Source: Opitutaceae bacterium
Lineage (GTDB): Bacteria > Verrucomicrobiota > Verrucomicrobiia > Opitutales > Opitutaceae
Direction: 5' to 3'
DNA length: 64,000 bases
Assembly (NCBI GenBank): GCA_002694885.1
Contig: NZNM01000140.1
Coordinates: 1 to 64,000, forward strand
The first letter of the stretch is position 1; every line of letters starts with the position of its first letter. Shown here one piece after another: positions 643-13,461 of this stretch. Below the pieces are notes generated by a model. That model was given only the letters and a program-made list of their open reading frames with translations, made no database searches and was not told the origin of the DNA. The position numbers were made by a program, and so were the translations under genes.

Positions 643-1616
643 GTTAAGGTTGTGTAGGAAGTCAAGGCTCTGGCGGAAGGGGCCGCAGGCCGAGTGCAGT
701 CGGAGCCTTGCTCGGATTCCTCTGAGTTTAACTGCTGAGCGAATCTGATGGGGCTGATCTAGCCGAGGGAGCGGTGCGAGCGGATGTTTTTATACTTCCA
801 ACGCCAGTCGCCGATGACCACTCTTGCTTCGGTCAGGGTCCATGGTTGTTCGCGATTCAGACACTCTTCCCGGAGGCGGGCATTGAAGCTCTCCACGTAT
901 CCATTATGACATGGGCTTCCCGGTTCGATATAGATTGTCTTGATTCGCTTTTCGGCAAGCCAGCGTCGAAGCCCGTTTTCGATCAACTCCGAGCCGTTGT
1001 CGCTGCGGAAGCGATCTGGAACTCGGCGACGATTGATCAGCGAGGACGTAATCCGCCTGACCTTTCAGGTTTATCCGGCGGTCCACGTGGATGCATAGGC
1101 ACTCGCGCGTGTGCTCGTCGATCACGTCGAGCACGCAAAGGTTGCCTCCGCGCATGGTGCTGTCGTGAACAAAGCCCTAGGTCCAGATGTGATTGCGATG
1201 CCTCGCCTCGGTCGGAAGGCCCGTAGAGGGTCCCCGACGCCTTCGCTTTAGCTTCTTGGCCGGAACGGCCAGGCCGAGTTCGCGACGCAGCCACTGGACC
1301 ATGCGGGCACCTGCCGTCCAGCCCTCCCATTTACGAAGGCGGGCTATCTTCGGGTATCCCATTTCCGGATATTGGTTGGAGACTCGACGAATGGAGGATT
1401 TCAGCTTCGAGAGCCAAGCGTTGGGCTGTTTCGCCCGATAGGCGAACGTGCAGCGCTCCCCGGACACGAACTCGTCGGCGGGCATCCGCTTCAGATGGAG
1501 GCTCTGCTCGCTGATGCCTTGCTCGCGGCATACCTAGATAATGGTCTTGTCCGCCCGCTCGGCCTCCCGAGGAATGCGGTTCTCCTGCTCTGTGGTGTAT
1601 TTTTTGCCTTTCATTG
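643..1616 (-). mobile_element. Decayed IS3-family insertion sequence (orfA/orfB remnants in several frames)
   Basis: orfA-like MKGKKYTTEQENRIPREAERADKTII*VCREQGISEQSLHLKR; orfB pieces including YPEMGYPKIARLRKWEGW...GLAVPAKKLKRRRRG, VLDVIDEHTRECL, and IYIEPGSPCHNGYVESFNARLREECLN...NIRSHRSLG; broken by stops and frameshifts. Confidence 0.85.
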
Positions 1617-1815
1617 TCTTGGTCCTTTCTAGTGGCCCAGACTAACTTTCCAAGCGGCCCAGTTTAGCTCACCTCGACCACTGTTGATGCCAAGCGATCG
1701 TCCCGTCTTGAGGCAGGCGCATCTGGACGGAACCGACACATATTCCGATTTTTTGGACACTTTCTGAGGAAACTTTTGCCTAAACCTCGTCCCTACTGAG
1801 CCGTTTTTAATCGCA

Positions 1816-4017
1816 ATGAATAGCTTTTTCCCCAACTTTGTGGACATGAGGAGAGAACTTCTGCCCAAAACTGTAGCCCTCAAACTAGCAGCGGCGACGC
1901 TCTTGATCGCAACGACTGCCTGCTCTTCACAATCAAGGCTCGAGAGACACATGGCTAAGGCGGAAGAGCATTTCGCAAATGGGGACTTTCGAGCGGCAGA
2001 GATAGAATACAAAAACGCGCTGCAGATCGACTCAACCGTCGCTGAGGCTCCGGGCCAGCTAGGACTAATTTACTTCGAGCAAGGACGTCAGCGATTGGCC
2101 CTGCCTTTGCTTTCGCAAGCCACTCAGATTGACCCCGAGAATGCCAAATTTCTGGGCCCACTTTTATCGATCCGATCTCAAATCGAGCCCCCAGAGGAAG
2201 TCTGGAAGACTGCCAAGGACTTACTGGCGAAGGATCCCGCCAATCAATACGCCCTCTCCGCTCTGCAATCGTCGGCCATGAAGCTTGGGCGCGCCGACGA
2301 GGCCCGCTCGATACTGGAAAACTTGGCTAGCCAGGGAAACTCCGCAGGGGCGACGACTGCCCTGGCAATGCTCGATGCATCGTCGGGCAATCTGGATGCC
2401 GCCGTGGCGATTTTGGAACGCGCCATCCAAATCGATCCATCTTACTCGCTTGCCCATCTCGCCAAGGCGAACCTTCTGTGGGCAAAAAAAGATCTGGAAG
2501 CCGCCGAAAAATCGTTTTCCGCTGCCTCTGCCGGCACTGCAGTAAAGCCGAACATCATTTTGGCGCACGCCCAATTCAAGCTGCAAACCGGTAACCAACA
2601 AGACGCCAAAGCTATCCTTGAGCGCGTTGCAGCCAACTATCCTGATTTTGTACCAGGCCTTTTGGCCAGAGCCCGCCTCTTTACTATCGAAGGATCCACG
2701 GACGATGCTCTGGAGTTGACGAAACGAGCCGAGCAATTGGATCCGATGAGTCCTGAGATTGCGATACTCGCCTCCCAATTAGATTTGAGAGTGGGCGATG
2801 CCGCATCTGCCATAAACCGAATGAAGATCGTAACACAGCGATATCCCAATTTCGCAGGGGGCCATTACGCTCTGTCGTTAGCCTTGATTGCCGACGATCA
2901 ACCTCTGCAAGCCAGTAGCAGCCTTCTCAAGACACTCTCTCTGCAGTCCGACCACATCGGAGCTATTTTGGCTTTGTCGAATCTTGAAATCGGTCAAGGA
3001 GACTTCGGTAGTGCTGAAGCCAGATTGCTTAAGGCGGTCGAGATAGCTCCCGATAATCATCAAGCGAGCCTTCTTCTCGCCAAAGGATACGCCTTGGAAA
3101 AGAACTTTTCTAAAGCCCTCGAACTCTATCTTTCTTTGGCCGAAAAAATCCCCAACGATCCTGCGCTGCCTTACCAAGCAGCATTGGTTCAGATGGAACT
3201 TGGCGATTCTGATATAGCTCGGAAATCTCTCGAAACCTCGCTTGAGCGCAACCCTGCGTACATACCCGCCCTTGAGCAGGTACTCCTGCTAGACGCCAGC
3301 GAAAATAATTTCGAAATCGCCAGCGATCGGCTGGCTCCGCTCATCAAGAAAGAGCCCGATTCCGCTATTCTACAATTTCTCAGTGGTAAGTTGGCTCTCG
3401 CCCAAAATGATTCACAGGCCGGAATCTACCGGCTAAAGAGGGCATTATCCCTCGACCCGACCCTCAGGCCAGCTTCCTACGCTCTCGCCCAAGCCTTCCT
3501 CGCCGTTGGCAATTTAGAAGAGGCGCAAGAGATTCTCAATGCGGTAATCGCCGCCAATCCGGAGGATCTGGAAGCGATTTTCAGTTTGGGGAATTTGTAC
3601 GAGGAAAGTTCGGACTACACTACCGCGATGGAACACTACAATACCGTATTGAACATCGACTCCAATCATTACAAAGCATTGAACAACCTAGCCTACCTTC
3701 TGAGTAATGAGTCTGGGGACATCGAAGGTGCCTACTCAATGGCTCTTCGGGCCCGCGAGTTGGCCCCCAACGATCCTGCCGTCGCCGATACCCTGGGATG
3801 GATTGCCTACCTGAGAGGGGACTTTGCGTTTGCTAGGGATCTTCTTTTGGAAAGCAGCAAGAAGATGGAAGCGCCTTTAATCTTTTATCATTTGGCGAAG
3901 GTGTATGTCGCCCTTGACATGATTGCAGAAGCAAAAACCACGTTAGAGGGAGCTATCAGCCTCGGCTTACCAGATGAAGAGGCAGATGACGCGAAGGCTT
4001 TGATCCAAAATTTGTAA
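1816..4017 (+). CDS. prsT: TPR-repeat lipoprotein of the exosortase system (PrsT-like)
   Basis: 733 aa, lipoprotein-type signal (LLIATTACSS), TPR repeats throughout, adjacent to VPDSG-CTERM protein, PrsK-like, exosortase and PrsR-like genes. Confidence 0.8.
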   Translation: MNSFFPNFVDMRRELLPKTVALKLAAATLLIATTACSSQSRLERHMAKAEEHFANGDFRAAEIEYKNALQIDSTVAEAPGQLGLIYFEQGRQRLALPLLSQATQIDPENAKFLGPLLSIRSQIEPPEEVWKTAKDLLAKDPANQYALSALQSSAMKLGRADEARSILENLASQGNSAGATTALAMLDASSGNLDAAVAILERAIQIDPSYSLAHLAKANLLWAKKDLEAAEKSFSAASAGTAVKPNIILAHAQFKLQTGNQQDAKAILERVAANYPDFVPGLLARARLFTIEGSTDDALELTKRAEQLDPMSPEIAILASQLDLRVGDAASAINRMKIVTQRYPNFAGGHYALSLALIADDQPLQASSSLLKTLSLQSDHIGAILALSNLEIGQGDFGSAEARLLKAVEIAPDNHQASLLLAKGYALEKNFSKALELYLSLAEKIPNDPALPYQAALVQMELGDSDIARKSLETSLERNPAYIPALEQVLLLDASENNFEIASDRLAPLIKKEPDSAILQFLSGKLALAQNDSQAGIYRLKRALSLDPTLRPASYALAQAFLAVGNLEEAQEILNAVIAANPEDLEAIFSLGNLYEESSDYTTAMEHYNTVLNIDSNHYKALNNLAYLLSNESGDIEGAYSMALRARELAPNDPAVADTLGWIAYLRGDFAFARDLLLESSKKMEAPLIFYHLAKVYVALDMIAEAKTTLEGAISLGLPDEEADDAKALIQNL

Positions 4018-4192
4018 CAATTTATCTATTTCCTAGTCAGGTTGAAGTTATGGGGATAGCTAATGTTTTATACGTACCTATCCTAGAGATTTAACAGTCG
4101 GTACTTCACGATAAAATTGGGAATGAATTCGGGATTCAGCCCACAAATTAACGCTCTTTACTTGCCGTTTTACCATCGTGTCACTTTCCTTT

Positions 4193-4204
4193 ACACTTTA
4201 GTGT
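4193..4204. promoter_or_regulatory. Palindrome ACACTTTAGTGT, candidate upstream activator element 1
   Basis: ACACT-TT-AGTGT inverted repeat upstream of the sigma-54-type promoter of the VPDSG-CTERM gene. Confidence 0.4.
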
Positions 4205-4265
4205 TTTTCATAAGTTGTTGCTGTTCAGCTTTTTAAGAAAGGCTTCTTTGGGTCAGGCTGAAAAG

Positions 4266-4282
4266 TGTAAAAATTCTTTACA
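4266..4282. promoter_or_regulatory. Inverted repeat TGTAAA-AATTC-TTTACA, candidate PrsR upstream activating sequence
   Basis: Perfect 6-bp arms, 5-bp spacer, about 100 bp upstream of the -24/-12 element. Confidence 0.55.
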
Positions 4283-4377
4283 GCCTAAAAACTTGTTAAA
4301 AAAAATTATTTCTTATTTTTTTCATAAATTCCTGCTAACCAGCACTTTAGAAAACCCCGGTAAACTCGCTGGCTACA

Positions 4378-4394
4378 TTGGCACCTGATTTGCT
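4378..4394 (+). promoter_or_regulatory. Sigma-54 (-24/-12) promoter of the VPDSG-CTERM gene
   Basis: TTGGCACCTGATTTGCT matches TTGGCAC-N5-TTGC(A/T) with GG/GC spacing of 10 nt, 62 bp upstream of the ATG. Confidence 0.8.
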
Positions 4395-4455
4395 AAAGTT
4401 GTGCTAACCGTCATATTTTTGGCGAACCACTAAAAATATTAACAATATAAACAAA

Positions 4456-5031
4456 ATGAACAAAATACTTAGCTTAAAAATTCTTGTAGCTACTGCTCTA
4501 GGATTGATTGCTTCCGTTGGAGCAGTTGCTGCTCCCCTCAACGGAGACATCAAATTCCAGGGTTCAGCCACACTTGACGCTGTTGCTGCTTCTGCTACCA
4601 AAATCACGTTTAACAACGACGTTGAAGTGAACGCTTCAGGGTCGACTGGAGATTATGCCGGCATTGCTAACGGCACAAGTGCTACATTCAAGGTGCTTGA
4701 CTTCAGTAGTTCAGGTTACGTCGGTAATCTTGCTATTGATAACCTGTGGACTGTCGTATACTCCGGAACAACGTATACTTTCGATCTCGAGAGAATCACT
4801 GTTAACTCCGTGATTGGCACAACGCTCATTATCGAAGGTTTCGGTACAGCTGAATCTACTGATGCGAGTCAAGACGACTGGGTCGCAGCGTTCCAGTTAA
4901 GCACATCTGGAAGCGGCACCGAAATCAACTTCTCCTCCACCACAGAAGTCCCAGATTCCGGCACTACTGCCGCACTTCTGGGTCTAGGTATGCTGGGCCT
5001 TGCCGGAGCAGCTAGACGTCTGAAAAAGTAA
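4456..5031 (+). CDS. Secreted protein with VPDSG-CTERM sorting signal
   Basis: N-terminal signal peptide; C-terminus VPDSGTTAALLGLGMLGLAGAARRLKK is a classic VPDSG motif, hydrophobic helix and basic tail. Confidence 0.92.
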   Translation: MNKILSLKILVATALGLIASVGAVAAPLNGDIKFQGSATLDAVAASATKITFNNDVEVNASGSTGDYAGIANGTSATFKVLDFSSSGYVGNLAIDNLWTVVYSGTTYTFDLERITVNSVIGTTLIIEGFGTAESTDASQDDWVAAFQLSTSGSGTEINFSSTTEVPDSGTTAALLGLGMLGLAGAARRLKK

Positions 5032-5058
5032 CTTTTAACGGACACCCTATCTATTTAC

Positions 5059-5095
5059 AAAGGCCGCTGCGTTCAATGCAGCGGCCTTTTTATTT
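5059..5095 (+). terminator. Intrinsic terminator after the VPDSG-CTERM gene
   Basis: AAAGGCCGCTGC-N7-GCAGCGGCCTTTTTATTTTT. Confidence 0.9.
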
Positions 5096-5266
5096 TTGCA
5101 CAAATCACTAAGTCCTCTAGGATGCTATTGCACTATCTCTTGCTTCCAAATAATTATTAAATCGAGGGCCTCGCTTAGTAAAATTTTGAAAGGCTTCTGT
5201 AATTTTTACCTACTCGAAGAATAATCCCCTTTGATTGAATTTTCCCCAACCATCATAATCTCCCCC

Positions 5267-7393
5267 ATGAGCCAAACTTATGCCATATTGCTTTTCGCCG
5301 CAGTAATGCTTTGCGGCATTTATGTATTGGCCTGCTGCTCTTTACCTAGGGTCTGGCGACACAAATCGTTAACTACTTGGGTTTTGGCAATTAACAGCGC
5401 TCTGCTGCTTGCTGAAAGTATCGCTGTTTTATTGAGCACAAAATCTGATATCGGTGCTGGTATAACTTGGTACAATGCAAGAATTATCATTTCGTCTTTT
5501 CTGCCCGGTACTTGGATTGTTTTAAGCCTCGTCTACGCTCGAGGTCAAAGTTTGAGGTTTGTGGGCCGCTGGCGTTGGACGATACTTGGTTTCCTGCTGC
5601 TGCCTGCGATTATAGCCGTTTTTTTCGCAGATAGATATTTTATCTCCAGCCAACCAATCACCCTCGCTTACCCCAATCTAATACTCGGCTTTGCTGGGCA
5701 GACCATACAAGTAATTATAATAGCGGGTTGCGTAATCGCTTTGATGAATCTTGAGCGAACCTACCGTGCAGCTATCGGAACCCTCCGATGGAGAGTTAAA
5801 TATACACTCCTCGGTATGGCCACGCTATTGGTACTTCGGTTCTACACAAGTAGCCAAGCCATTCTTTTCGGTAGCATTAGCCCAGCCATGGATGCTATTT
5901 GTGCCGCAGGCACAATCGTCTCTATCCTCATTATGCTAAGAGGCCTTCCCAGAGAGGGTAATTTAGAAATCGATCTATATCCCTCGCATCAGGTCATCAG
6001 TAACTCCATCACGATCATTCTAGCTGGGGCTTATCTTTTCGTTGTTGGAGTGCTCGCAAAAGCGGTGACCTATTTCGGAGGTGACGTTGCTTTCCCAATC
6101 AAAGCACTCGGTGTTTTAGTCGCGATAGTGCTACTCGCGACTTTATTGCAATCAGACCGATTTCAACTGTCCATAAGGCAATTCGTAAGCCGGCATTTCA
6201 AGCGACCTAAATATGACTACCGCAAAATCTGGAAACGTTTTACTGAGGAAGCTGCTCACTCGCTTCAGCAAGACACATTTTGCCAATCACTTGCTAGACT
6301 TAGTAGTGAAACTTTCGACGTCCTGTCCGTAAGCATATGGCTCTTTGAAGAAGATAAACGTCGTCTACGCCTTCAATCCTCCACTATTATTACCGATTAT
6401 AATGAATCGCTAGCTCAATTGATTCAGCATGATTTCGAATCGTTAAGTTCAACCTTTGTGAAGGATTCTCGCCCAATCGATCTTGAAAATTGCACAGAGC
6501 AATGGGCCCGAAGTTTCGTCAAACTAAATCCTAAAAAGTTCACAGATGGTGGAAACAGGATTTGTGTTCCGATGACTACAAGAAATTCGCTGCTCGGCGT
6601 AATGGTTCTTGGAGACCGCGTTAATGGTATTCCTTTTTCAGAAGAGGAAGTCGACGTACTTGCCAGCATTGGTGACCACGCCGCCTCGAGTCTGCTTAAT
6701 TTGCAGCTTTCGTGCAGGCTCATCGAGAATCGCGAGCTCGAAGCCTTTCAAAAAATGGCAACTTTTTTCGTTCACGATCTGAAAAATGCCGCTTCAACTC
6801 TTAACATGATGGTCAAGAACCTTCCTTTGCATTGGAATAAACCTGAATTTCGCGAGGATGCTCTTAGGGGTATTTCACGTACGGGAGATAGAATTAATCA
6901 GCTTATTGAACGTCTTGGGACTATGAGAAAAGGACTCGAGATAAATGTTAGGTCCTGCAACTTTGATACCTTTATAATCTCAACCCTCTCCGATTGGGAC
7001 ACTCCACCTCGAATAGATCTTAACCGTTCGCTAAATTGCCAAACTTGTGCTTCGATCGATACAGAGCAATTGGGAAAGGTGATTATCAATCTCCTTATCA
7101 ATGCATCCGAGGCCATGGATGAAGTCGGCGAAGTTGACATTATGACCGGTATTGAAGGTAGCCACATCTATCTTAAAGTAAAAGATGATGGATGTGGAAT
7201 GACCCCTGAGTTTCTTGAAAAACGGCTGTTCCGACCATTTCAAACAACAAAGCAGCGGGGTATCGGTATTGGTATGTTCCAAAGCAAGATGATTGTAGAA
7301 GCCCACGGCGGCCAGCTATCGGCGGAAAGTGAGGAGGGGAAAGGAGCAACCTTTTCAATGGTTTTGCCTACGAGAGATAATCAAACCAGCTAA
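5267..7393 (+). CDS. prsK: PEP-CTERM/exosortase-system membrane histidine kinase (PrsK-like)
   Basis: N-terminal multi-TM region, GAF-like domain, FFVHDLKNAASTLNMMVKN H-box, N/G boxes (NLLINASEAMDEVG, DDGCGMTPEF); ATG at 5267 preferred over the upstream TTG. Confidence 0.85.
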   Translation: MSQTYAILLFAAVMLCGIYVLACCSLPRVWRHKSLTTWVLAINSALLLAESIAVLLSTKSDIGAGITWYNARIIISSFLPGTWIVLSLVYARGQSLRFVGRWRWTILGFLLLPAIIAVFFADRYFISSQPITLAYPNLILGFAGQTIQVIIIAGCVIALMNLERTYRAAIGTLRWRVKYTLLGMATLLVLRFYTSSQAILFGSISPAMDAICAAGTIVSILIMLRGLPREGNLEIDLYPSHQVISNSITIILAGAYLFVVGVLAKAVTYFGGDVAFPIKALGVLVAIVLLATLLQSDRFQLSIRQFVSRHFKRPKYDYRKIWKRFTEEAAHSLQQDTFCQSLARLSSETFDVLSVSIWLFEEDKRRLRLQSSTIITDYNESLAQLIQHDFESLSSTFVKDSRPIDLENCTEQWARSFVKLNPKKFTDGGNRICVPMTTRNSLLGVMVLGDRVNGIPFSEEEVDVLASIGDHAASSLLNLQLSCRLIENRELEAFQKMATFFVHDLKNAASTLNMMVKNLPLHWNKPEFREDALRGISRTGDRINQLIERLGTMRKGLEINVRSCNFDTFIISTLSDWDTPPRIDLNRSLNCQTCASIDTEQLGKVIINLLINASEAMDEVGEVDIMTGIEGSHIYLKVKDDGCGMTPEFLEKRLFRPFQTTKQRGIGIGMFQSKMIVEAHGGQLSAESEEGKGATFSMVLPTRDNQTS

Positions 7394-7835: not shown

Positions 7836-8756
7836 ATGGTTAATCTTAATATTTCCGCGACCAAAGCTTTGAAAACCAAATCGAAGGTAACGGGCGACAA
7901 TTGGCGCTGGTTTGTTATCGCAGCGATGGCCCTCACCGGCGCGTTTGCCCTACCCCTGTGGAATCTGGCTCAATATGGTCTCGAAACCGAACTCTACTCC
8001 CACTGCTGGCTCATGCCGCTGGTCAGCGCCTACTTGATCTGGACAGACAGAGGCACTCTCGTAGGCCGTGGGCGCGGCAATTCAAATCGTATTTTCGCTA
8101 TCATCCCTGCCGCTTTTGCCGTCCTTCTGATAGTTCTTTTCCAGGTAAACCATAGCGTTTGGGTCGGGAATCTGTACGAGAATGCTCTGAGTAGCTTGGC
8201 CTTCGCCTACGTTTTTTCGATCTATACAGCCGCCATATTGTGCCTCAGGCCTAACACACTTCGGAAGATCGCCTTTCCCTTGGCGGTCGCTCTTTTCACC
8301 GCGCCTTTCCCCGTTGCCTTAAAAGATGCAACGGTAACCTTCTTTCAGTACACCTCAGCTGAGGCTGCTTACTGGATGCTTAAACTTGCCGGGAACACTA
8401 TTTATCGCGACGGTCTCGTATTCGTTCTGCCCTCTGTCACCATGGAAGTGGCGCCTCAGTGTAGCGGTATTCGTTCAAGCTTGGTGCTTTTTCTCGTAAG
8501 CTTGGTCGCATCTCAACTTTTCTTAAAAACTGCTTGGAAAAAAATTTCGCTAGTAATCTTCGTAATTCCACTGGCAATCGGACGCAATGGATTGCGTATT
8601 TTCACTCTCGGCGAACTGTGCGAGCGCGTAGGGCCACACATGATCGATCACTGGATACACCATAGCGGAGGGCCGATATTCTTCGCGCTTTCATTAACCG
8701 CTTTCTTTGCATTTTTATTCTACCTCGTCAGGAATGAGCCCAAAACGACGAGCTAA
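7836..8756 (+). CDS. xrtC: Exosortase (VPDSG-CTERM type, XrtC-like)
   Basis: Multi-TM; catalytic motifs APQCSGIRSS (Cys), GRNGLRI (Arg) and HHSGG (His). Confidence 0.88.
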   Translation: MVNLNISATKALKTKSKVTGDNWRWFVIAAMALTGAFALPLWNLAQYGLETELYSHCWLMPLVSAYLIWTDRGTLVGRGRGNSNRIFAIIPAAFAVLLIVLFQVNHSVWVGNLYENALSSLAFAYVFSIYTAAILCLRPNTLRKIAFPLAVALFTAPFPVALKDATVTFFQYTSAEAAYWMLKLAGNTIYRDGLVFVLPSVTMEVAPQCSGIRSSLVLFLVSLVASQLFLKTAWKKISLVIFVIPLAIGRNGLRIFTLGELCERVGPHMIDHWIHHSGGPIFFALSLTAFFAFLFYLVRNEPKTTS

Positions 8757-8767
8757 ATAGCGACCTC

Positions 8768-10120
8768 ATGAAACCAACCTTGCTAATCGTCGATGATGAC
8801 GAGGAAATTCGCGCTCAACTCAAGTGGGGGCTGTCTGATAGTTATGATATCGTCCAAGCTGCTGACCGAAGAACCGCGCTGGAAAAATTTCGCCTTCATC
8901 GCCCGTTAGTGATAATGCTGGACTTGGGATTGCCGCCAAACTCAAACGGGCCAGAAGAGGGCTTAGCAGCTCTTTCGGAAATACTCGAAGAATCCCCGCT
9001 AACCAAGGTAGTGATCGCTTCAGGCCAAAATGAAAGAGCCAACACGCTGTCCGCTATTGGGGCGGGAGCCTACGATTTCCTTCCCAAGCCTGTCGAAATA
9101 GAGGAGTTCAAACTCCTGCTGAAAAGGTGTTTTAACGTCGCTCAACTCGAGCGCGAATTTATCCAATACAAGCAGCAAATTCAGGGGGATACCTTCGAAG
9201 GGATGCTGGGGACTAGCGAGCCCATGCAGGCCGTGTTCGATTCTATTCGCAAGGTAGCGAACACCCGAGCATCAGTCATGATTCTCGGTGAAAGCGGTAC
9301 GGGCAAAGAGATGGCCGCCCGAGCGATTCATCAGCGGAGTGATCGGTCGGCGGGCCCCTTCGTGGCGATCAACTGCAGTGCCATTCCTGATAATCTACTG
9401 GAGAGCGAGCTGTTCGGGCATGAAAAAGGCTCTTTTACCGGGGCTCACACCCAGCACATCGGCAAAATCGAGCAGTCCCAGGGTGGGACCCTGTTTTTGG
9501 ACGAAATTGGAGAGGTCCCCTTGCAAACCCAGGTAAAGCTCCTGCGTTTTTTGCAAGAAGGCACCATCGAGCGCGTTGGGGGCCGCAAAACCATTTCCGT
9601 CGACTCCCGAATCCTGACCGCCACCAACGCAGACCTTAAAAAAGGGATGACTGACGGTACCTTTCGCGAGGATTTCTACTATCGCCTGAGCGTTGTCGAG
9701 CTCAGCTTACCGCCTCTCCGGGATCGCGGAAACGATATCCATCTAGTCGCTCGAGCCTTGCTTCAACGCTTTGGGGCGGAGAACAACAAGCCGGAACTCT
9801 CTTTCAGCAAGCGGGCGCTTTTCGCCATTTCCAACCACTCATGGGCCGGCAATATTCGCGAGCTTCAGAATCGCATACGACGGGCGGTTATTATGTGCGA
9901 GGGAGGGACGATTTCGCCCACTGATCTGGAGTTAGCCGATCAAAATCTGGACCGCTTGCCCGTTAAGACCCTCAAAGCCGCCAAAGAGGACCTCGAACGA
10001 GAAATGATCGAAGCCGCTATGAGGCGCAATCTAGGCAAAATTACTACCACCGCTAGTGATTTAGGAATCAGCCGTCCGACACTTTACGAGCTACTGGAAC
10101 GGTATGGGATTGAAAGGTGA
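8768..10120 (+). CDS. prsR: PEP-CTERM-box sigma-54-dependent response regulator (PrsR-like)
   Basis: Receiver LIVDDDEEIR, Walker A GESGTGKE, GAFTGA as GSFTGA, C-terminal HTH LGISRPTLYELLERYGIE. Confidence 0.92.
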   Translation: MKPTLLIVDDDEEIRAQLKWGLSDSYDIVQAADRRTALEKFRLHRPLVIMLDLGLPPNSNGPEEGLAALSEILEESPLTKVVIASGQNERANTLSAIGAGAYDFLPKPVEIEEFKLLLKRCFNVAQLEREFIQYKQQIQGDTFEGMLGTSEPMQAVFDSIRKVANTRASVMILGESGTGKEMAARAIHQRSDRSAGPFVAINCSAIPDNLLESELFGHEKGSFTGAHTQHIGKIEQSQGGTLFLDEIGEVPLQTQVKLLRFLQEGTIERVGGRKTISVDSRILTATNADLKKGMTDGTFREDFYYRLSVVELSLPPLRDRGNDIHLVARALLQRFGAENNKPELSFSKRALFAISNHSWAGNIRELQNRIRRAVIMCEGGTISPTDLELADQNLDRLPVKTLKAAKEDLEREMIEAAMRRNLGKITTTASDLGISRPTLYELLERYGIER

Positions 10121-12789: not shown

Positions 12790-13461
12790 TTGCCTATGAA
12801 TGCCTGCTTTGCTGCGCCTAATGCACTTGCTGTTGCCCTAGCTGCGCTAATAATAATACCCCAACTCTCCGCTATTAGCGTCTGGATAAATGAATTTCAT
12901 TATGACAATAATGGCGGAGACGTTGGGGAGTTTGTGGAGATCGCCGGAGTGGCGGGGACCGATCTCAGCCTCTACTCTCTAATGCTCTACAATGGAAACA
13001 ATGGCGAGAGCTATGGAAACATCTCTCTTTCAGGCTTAGTGCCTGACGAATCGAATGGATTCGGAGCTCTTTCTTTCCTTAAATCTGGAATTGAAAATGG
13101 CTCGCCCGATGGGCTCTACTTATCTGGGCCAAGTGGGAGCCAATTTCTGAGCTACGAGGGCTCCTTCACCGCAAGTAATGGAGCAGCCAATGGCCTGCTG
13201 AGCACTGATATCGGGTTGGACGAAACAAGTTCGACTCCTATTGGGCAATCCCTACAATTGACGGGATTGGGTGCTGAATATGCCGACTTTAGCTGGACTG
13301 GTCCAGCGTTTGAATCGCCGGGCACACTTAACTCGGGCCAATCGATGCCCCAGCCAACGGGTTCCACTTCCGGGGCGTCTTCTGTACCTGACAATGGCTC
13401 TTCAGGTCTGCTTATAACGCTGGCATTGAGCGGACTATTGGTTCTTCGACGGATGATCTAG
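12790..13461 (+). CDS. Secreted lamin-tail-domain-like protein with divergent VPDNG-CTERM tail
   Basis: Signal peptide; ISVWINEFHYDNNGGDVGEFVEIAGVAG resembles LTD domains; C-terminus SVPDNGSSGLLITLALSGLLVLRRMI. Confidence 0.75.
   Translation: MPMNACFAAPNALAVALAALIIIPQLSAISVWINEFHYDNNGGDVGEFVEIAGVAGTDLSLYSLMLYNGNNGESYGNISLSGLVPDESNGFGALSFLKSGIENGSPDGLYLSGPSGSQFLSYEGSFTASNGAANGLLSTDIGLDETSSTPIGQSLQLTGLGAEYADFSWTGPAFESPGTLNSGQSMPQPTGSTSGASSVPDNGSSGLLITLALSGLLVLRRMI

What the first reader, a model, noticed from the sequence alone, without database searches (positions are those of the whole stretch)
4193..4394. Sigma-54 promoter plus TGTAAA-N5-TTTACA upstream elements form a readable regulatory module for the sorted protein
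Seen: TTGGCACCTGATTTGCT (excellent -24/-12) 62 bp before the ATG, with a perfect TGTAAA/TTTACA inverted repeat ~100 bp upstream and a second palindrome ACACTTTAGTGT ~70 bp further up. Enhancer-binding proteins of the NtrC class normally bind paired dyads at such distances. Inference: these are the PrsR binding sites and give a search motif for the regulon. I could not find an equally good combination before prsT, prsK, xrtC or the VPDNG gene.
Basis: partly seen in the sequence, partly recalled or inferred. Interest (0 to 1): 0.6.

Follow-up and report, generated by a model that had tools for sequence, protein, structure and literature searches.

The report
PrsR enhancer–sigma-54 promoter of VPDSG-CTERM gene
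The stretch is a bacterial on-switch (two activator boxes, a probable DNA-bending site and a sigma-54 promoter) in front of a gene for a surface-sorted protein; it is the 'PEP-CTERM box' switch reported in 2006 as confined to Proteobacteria, shown here to be widespread in Verrucomicrobiota in a longer form whose parts are spaced by whole turns of the DNA helix.

Summary
The letters are as described. The sigma-54 promoter (4378-4394) and a PrsR-box reading of the nearby repeat hold up, but the proposed search motif does not. Motif discovery on promoters of sorted-protein genes from other Verrucomicrobiota prsR loci, with the window left out, gave YGTCGG-N5-YTTACA plus a -24/-12 element. The same pairing, with a 17-nt motif ending in TTTACA, was published in 2006 as the PEP-CTERM box, proposed PrsR target, only in Proteobacteria (PMC1569441). 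The TGTAAA-N5-TTTACA repeat (4266-4282) is a diverged proximal box at the usual position; its perfect symmetry is peculiar to this copy. ACACTTTAGTGT merely overlaps the distal box. New here: the module occurs across Verrucomicrobiota; its spacer is longer (mostly 95-122 nt, against a mean of 62.8) and helically phased; and many spacers hold an IHF-like site (window 4337-4349, one mismatch). In this genome no other VPDSG-CTERM gene has the module, and three carry in-frame stops. The mechanism (phospho-PrsR plus IHF looping onto sigma-54 polymerase) is inferred; no binding or expression was measured.

The parts
1816..4017 (+). prsT-like TPR protein gene, upstream neighbour; no module before it
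   Evidence: TIGR02917 291 bits against cut-off 312; promoter scan
   Evidence: best of 127,968 positions with a PWM trained without the window, 14.4 bits
4193..4204 (.).
   Evidence: not recovered by motif discovery
4266..4282 (+). proximal PrsR box TGTAAAAATTCTTTACA; diverged left half makes it a perfect dyad
   Evidence: 12.3 bits, rank 5 of 127,968; spacer 95 nt lies in the main cluster (95-100) of relatives
4337..4349 (+). IHF-like site AACCAGCACTTTA, one mismatch to WATCAR-N4-TTR, 28 nt before the promoter
4378..4394 (+). sigma-54 -24/-12 promoter TTGGCACCTGATTTGCT (GG 4380-4381, GC 4392-4393); start site predicted near 4405
   Evidence: 18.5 bits, best in the window; perfect TGGCAY-N6-TGCW once in the window
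4456..5031 (+). VPDSG-CTERM sorted protein, 191 aa; homologous to CTERM proteins of relatives that carry the same promoter module
   Evidence: TIGR03778 33 bits against 22; PF18205; 32-41% identity over most of its length to the best matches
5059..5089 (+). intrinsic terminator, so the gene is probably a single-gene transcript
   Evidence: -24.3 kcal/mol for 5050-5100, z -6.2
5231..7393 (+). prsK histidine kinase
   Evidence: TIGR02916 372 bits against 300
7836..8756 (+). xrtC exosortase
   Evidence: TIGR04151 264 bits (cut-off 300, best of all exosortase models); PF09721
8768..10120 (+). prsR, sigma-54-activating response regulator with Fis-type HTH, proposed binder of the boxes
   Evidence: TIGR02915 576 bits against 502.6; domains; HTH alignment
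12790..13461 (+). second CTERM gene (VPDNG), without the module

Best explanation
4179-4394 is a PrsR-dependent sigma-54 promoter of the PEP-CTERM-box type driving one VPDSG-CTERM gene. It has two PrsR boxes 87 bp apart (centres about -218 and -131 from the predicted start), an IHF-like bend site (about -62) and a -24/-12 promoter. Inferred mechanism: PrsK phosphorylates PrsR; PrsR oligomers on the boxes are brought by IHF/HU bending onto the sigma-54 polymerase and open the promoter; the short transcript ends at 5059-5089 and its protein is processed by XrtC. Shown here: the sites, their clade-wide recurrence and fixed geometry, and the presence of PrsR, RpoN and an IHF-like protein. Inferred: binding, activation, signal.
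For: EM motif discovery on 31 upstream regions of sorted-protein genes, window and Nitrospirae held out, gave the box (LLR 219; four shuffles at most 64) and a -24/-12 element; the held-out window has its best sites of both kinds here. In PrsR-centred loci 25 of 29 sorted-protein genes carry the module against 1 of 802 other ORFs. Strict module: 46+11 matches in 62 PrsR- or XrtC-bearing genomes, 0 with the reversed control pattern; in 388 genomes of the phylum it occurs in 5 of 12 XrtC-positive and 1 of 376 others, control in 2. Spacers are phased (period about 11, p about 3e-4). IHF consensus with up to 1 mismatch: 32 of 61 spacers, shuffles mean 7.9, max 15. RpoN once in the genome, an IHF/HU-family protein closest to IHF-beta models. 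PrsR recognition helix SRPTLYEL is near-identical in Verrucomicrobiota and Nitrospirae and TRPTLYHL in Vibrio. A Vibrio plasmid PEP-CTERM gene has TGTCGATATATTTTACA plus a -24/-12 element.
Against: The proximal box lacks CGG (TGTAAA), so the strict pattern misses it. No other VPDSG-CTERM gene of this genome has the module, so regulon logic cannot be shown here. The models were trained on many of the same sorted-protein genes, so its first row is partly circular; the window, the other ORFs and the genome controls are not. The IHF-like word is also raised upstream of the boxes (14 of 60) and on the reverse strand (23 of 61), so part of the signal may be AT-rich composition. No binding or expression data.
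Confidence: 0.85

Rival explanations
1. The sigma-54 promoter is real, but the boxes bind a different enhancer-binding protein than PrsR.
For: No binding data. Verrucomicrobiota carry other NtrC-like regulators, e.g. L122.
Against: Sites were found by scanning loci that contain prsR; PrsR was independently proposed in 2006 from matching phylogenetic profiles (PMC1569441); its HTH is conserved across the phyla that share the box. G277 is a draft in 110 contigs.
Confidence: 0.1
2. The third element in the spacer is not an IHF site but a second regulator's site or low-affinity PrsR half-sites, since its core CTTAY resembles the right half of the box.
For: Core similarity; position 4 of the IHF consensus (C) is only 0.32.
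Against: All the other fixed positions of WATCAR-N4-TTR are reproduced, including A/G 0.46/0.46 at the R; exact matches in 7 of 61 spacers against 0.5 expected; IHF between enhancer and sigma-54 promoter is a known arrangement (PMC7962754).
Confidence: 0.3
3. The gene is expressed from a sigma-70 promoter and the -24/-12 match is chance.
For: Weak sigma-70-like matches at 4277-4306 and 4439-4466.
Against: Such matches are at chance level (4 found, 2.7 expected); the -24/-12 element recurs before homologous genes of relatives at the same place.
Confidence: 0.04
4. The perfect TGTAAA/TTTACA dyad is the operator of an unrelated dyad-binding regulator, superimposed on the module.
For: Perfect symmetry; the left half departs from the YGTCGG consensus.
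Against: It sits at the spacing expected for the proximal box (95 nt) with a second box 87 nt upstream; the dyad recurs nowhere else in the genome.
Confidence: 0.08

Closest known systems
PEP-CTERM box of Proteobacteria: motif 1 + sigma-54 motif 2, with PrsK/PrsR/PrsT (Haft et al. 2006, PMC1569441)
   Same: 17-nt upstream motif ending in TTTACA, sometimes repeated; -24/-12 element; single sorted-protein gene with a long upstream region; prsT, prsK and prsR at the locus; 61 nt from promoter to ATG (71 on average there)
   Different: Reported only in Proteobacteria. Here Verrucomicrobiota with XrtC/VPDSG, spacer 95 nt (clade mostly 95-122; 2006 mean 62.8, maximum 92), helically phased spacers and an IHF-like site, neither of which appears in the passages I read
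RpoN-dependent pepA of Aquincola tertiaricarbonis (PMC9850573)
   Same: sorted-protein gene whose transcript start maps to a -24/-12 TGGCAC...CTGCTT promoter, dependent on rpoN1, with the predicted enhancer upstream
   Different: Betaproteobacterium; experimental there, sequence only here; an effect of PrsR was not shown there either
NtrC/NifA-type sigma-54 promoters with IHF between enhancer and promoter (described in PMC7962754)
   Same: order enhancer - IHF site - -24/-12 promoter
   Different: different activator family member and box sequence

Membership tests
PEP-CTERM box promoter (Haft 2006) | 17-nt motif 1 ending in TTTACA upstream of a sorted-protein gene | tested here: met
   Two copies, 4179-4195 and 4266-4282; motif found without using the window. 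The 2006 logo itself could not be read (figure not held)
PEP-CTERM box promoter (Haft 2006) | sigma-54 -24/-12 motif 2 about 23-221 nt before the ATG | tested here: met
   4378-4394, 61 nt before the ATG
PEP-CTERM box promoter (Haft 2006) | spacer 32-92 nt between motif 1 and motif 2 | tested here: not met
   95 nt here; Verrucomicrobiota spacers are mostly longer than 92. Hence filed as a variant, not a plain member
PEP-CTERM box promoter (Haft 2006) | PrsR present in the genome | tested here: met
   TIGR02915 over cut-off, 4.3 kb downstream of the gene start
PEP-CTERM box promoter (Haft 2006) | restricted to Proteobacteria | tested here: not met
   Module found in many Verrucomicrobiota and two Nitrospirae records
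sigma-54 promoter | GG and GC dinucleotides at -24/-12, 12 nt apart, and rpoN in the genome | tested here: met
   GG 4380, GC 4392; rpoN C43:5234-6652
sigma-54 promoter | transcription lost without rpoN | not testable with these tools
   no expression data
IHF site | match to WATCAR-N4-TTR between enhancer and promoter | tested here: met
   4337-4349 with one mismatch at the modal place of relatives
IHF site | bound and bent by IHF | not testable with these tools
   an IHF-like gene exists, C43:9673-9948, below the IHF equivalog cut-offs
VPDSG-CTERM / XrtC system | CTERM signal plus XrtC | tested here: met
   TIGR03778 over cut-off; exosortase best matched by TIGR04151, 264 bits, below its curated 300

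The most novel reading that the evidence does not exclude
In Verrucomicrobiota the PEP-CTERM-box regulon uses a stereotyped, helically phased enhancer-IHF-sigma-54 architecture: activator boxes and bend site slide only by whole helical turns. The box and PrsR recognition helix are shared with Nitrospirae and a Vibrio, so the circuit is older or more mobile than the Proteobacteria and serves exosortases other than XrtA.
Probability: 0.65. Interest if true: 0.55.

Novelty: new variant of a known kind. Interest (0 to 1): 0.45.

Why it matters
The 2006 report limited this cis-regulatory site to Proteobacteria and left the regulation of other exosortase systems open. A clade-wide motif for Verrucomicrobiota gives a direct genome-level test of which sorted proteins are PrsR targets, links PrsR rather than a particular exosortase to the box, and offers a natural set of more than 50 promoters in which helical phasing of a sigma-54 enhancer can be studied.

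Tried and rejected
(1) TGTAAA-N5-TTTACA as regulon motif: one copy in the genome, absent before the other genes scanned. (2) ACACTTTAGTGT as an element: not recovered by motif discovery; overlaps the distal box. (3) My first sigma-54 scan had an indexing error and returned nothing; corrected. (4) Enrichment inside the own genome: seven other VPDSG-CTERM hits, none with the module, several of them broken genes or remnants. (5) A loose genome pattern: two hits in the own genome, one of them this site; too loose for regulon calling; no excess over the control in the XrtC-negative genomes of the family. (7) Nitratidesulfovibrio, Alteromonas and Photobacterium plasmid loci gave no module at my thresholds; only the Vibrio locus did. 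(8) Literature: no paper in the held library names VPDSG; none found that links the box to Verrucomicrobiota.

Full report
OBSERVATION. The locus is prsT-like, VPDSG gene, prsK, xrtC, prsR. By itself the dyad is thin evidence: one exact copy in 3.68 Mb.

COMPARISON. Loci with relatives of PrsR were fetched from named genomes. Genes with a VPDSG/PDGG-type sorting tail were listed and their upstream regions examined. Motif discovery by expectation-maximisation on 31 regions, with the window and the Nitrospirae left out, returned YGTCGGAAAnYTTTACA (log-likelihood ratio 219) and a TGGCAY-N6-TGC element (160); four dinucleotide shuffles gave at most 64. prsT, prsK, xrtC, prsR, the EpsL-like gene and the VPDNG gene lack the module. 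So the region has two activator boxes 87 bp apart, and the perfect symmetry of the proximal one arises because its left half has changed from YGTCGG to TGTAAA, the mirror of its right half.

SPECIFICITY. In the PrsR-centred loci 25 of 29 sorted-protein genes have the module against 1 of 802 other ORFs of 200 aa or more (first row partly circular). The strict module GTCG-N6-YTTACA-N(61-91 or 92-122)-TGGCAY-N6-TGC has 57 matches in 62 PrsR- or XrtC-bearing genomes and none for the reversed pattern. Of 41 distinct modules fetched, a script called 23 as lying before sorted-protein genes, and at least five more look so by eye. Across 388 genomes of the phylum, with the long-spacer form, it occurs in 5 of 12 XrtC-positive genomes and 1 of 376 others, with the reversed control in 2. 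The window's protein is homologous to sorted proteins of relatives (32-41% identity for the best matches) that carry the same module.

GEOMETRY. Spacers from box to promoter cluster at about 74-76, 82-88, 95-100, 106-110 and 118-122 nt. A periodicity near 11 bp exceeds a jitter null (p about 2e-4, 3e-4 on 62 de-duplicated spacers; the genomes are related, so the p-values are indicative). The window's 95 nt falls in the main cluster. Within the spacers a third motif emerged (LLR 132, shuffles at most 66). Its model, trained without the window, reads W-A-T-(A/C)-A-R-N4-T-T-R, nearly the E. coli IHF consensus WATCAR-N4-TTR (quoted in PMC7962754). With up to one mismatch that consensus is in 32 of 61 spacers (shuffles mean 7.9, max 15) but also in 14 of 60 stretches upstream of the boxes. 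In the window AACCAGCACTTTA, 4337-4349, has one mismatch and lies 28 nt before the promoter, the commonest place in relatives. The positions of the third motif are phased too.

PROTEINS. The genome has one RpoN and two HU/IHF-family proteins, one closest to IHF-beta models but below their curated cut-offs. PrsR has receiver, sigma-54 interaction and Fis-type HTH domains. Its recognition helix SRPTLYEL is near-identical in Verrucomicrobiota and Nitrospirae and is TRPTLYHL in Vibrio, while an Idiomarina NtrC-like homologue has SPRTLRYKL. A strong terminator follows the VPDSG gene, fitting a single-gene transcript.

KNOWN. Haft et al. 2006 (PMC1569441) described a 17-nt motif 1 ending in TTTACA, a spacer of 62.8 nt on average (32-92), and a sigma-54 motif 2, proposed PrsR as binder, and stated that only Proteobacteria had it. 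RpoN dependence and the start site of such a promoter were shown in Aquincola (PMC9850573). The kind is therefore known. The Verrucomicrobiota/XrtC occurrence, longer phased spacer and IHF-like site are, as far as the held library shows, not described (subscription papers are missing).

LIMITS. Binding, activation and signal are inferred.

Noticed in passing
G000 contigs C29, C150, C139 (L040, L044, L045); C60, C165 (L042, L043): Other VPDSG-CTERM genes look broken: in-frame stops in three, and only 27-30-aa open frames with the tail in two. The system seems to be decaying in this genome (assembly error not excluded).
   Followed up: partly
G311 (same genus): No XrtC (E <= 1e-40) and no PrsR (E <= 1e-140) found in a 97%-complete relative: apparent loss of the system within the genus.
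   Followed up: no
window 774-1660: Stretch just upstream of the prsT-like gene that looks like a remnant of an IS3-type transposase (by reading only, no search made).
   Followed up: no
G000 C43:5234-6652 and 9673-9948: rpoN and the IHF-beta-like gene lie about 3 kb apart.
   Followed up: no
L065, L066, L068: Contigs labelled Porticoccaceae, Planctomycetes and Gammaproteobacteria MAGs encode PrsR 67-68% identical to the window's; possibly mis-binned Verrucomicrobiota contigs.
   Followed up: no
G224:C1:538838, 543196, 2213613 (L237, L265, L266): Three near-identical modules in one same-genus genome, before PDTG-tail genes: paralogous family with copied promoter.
   Followed up: partly
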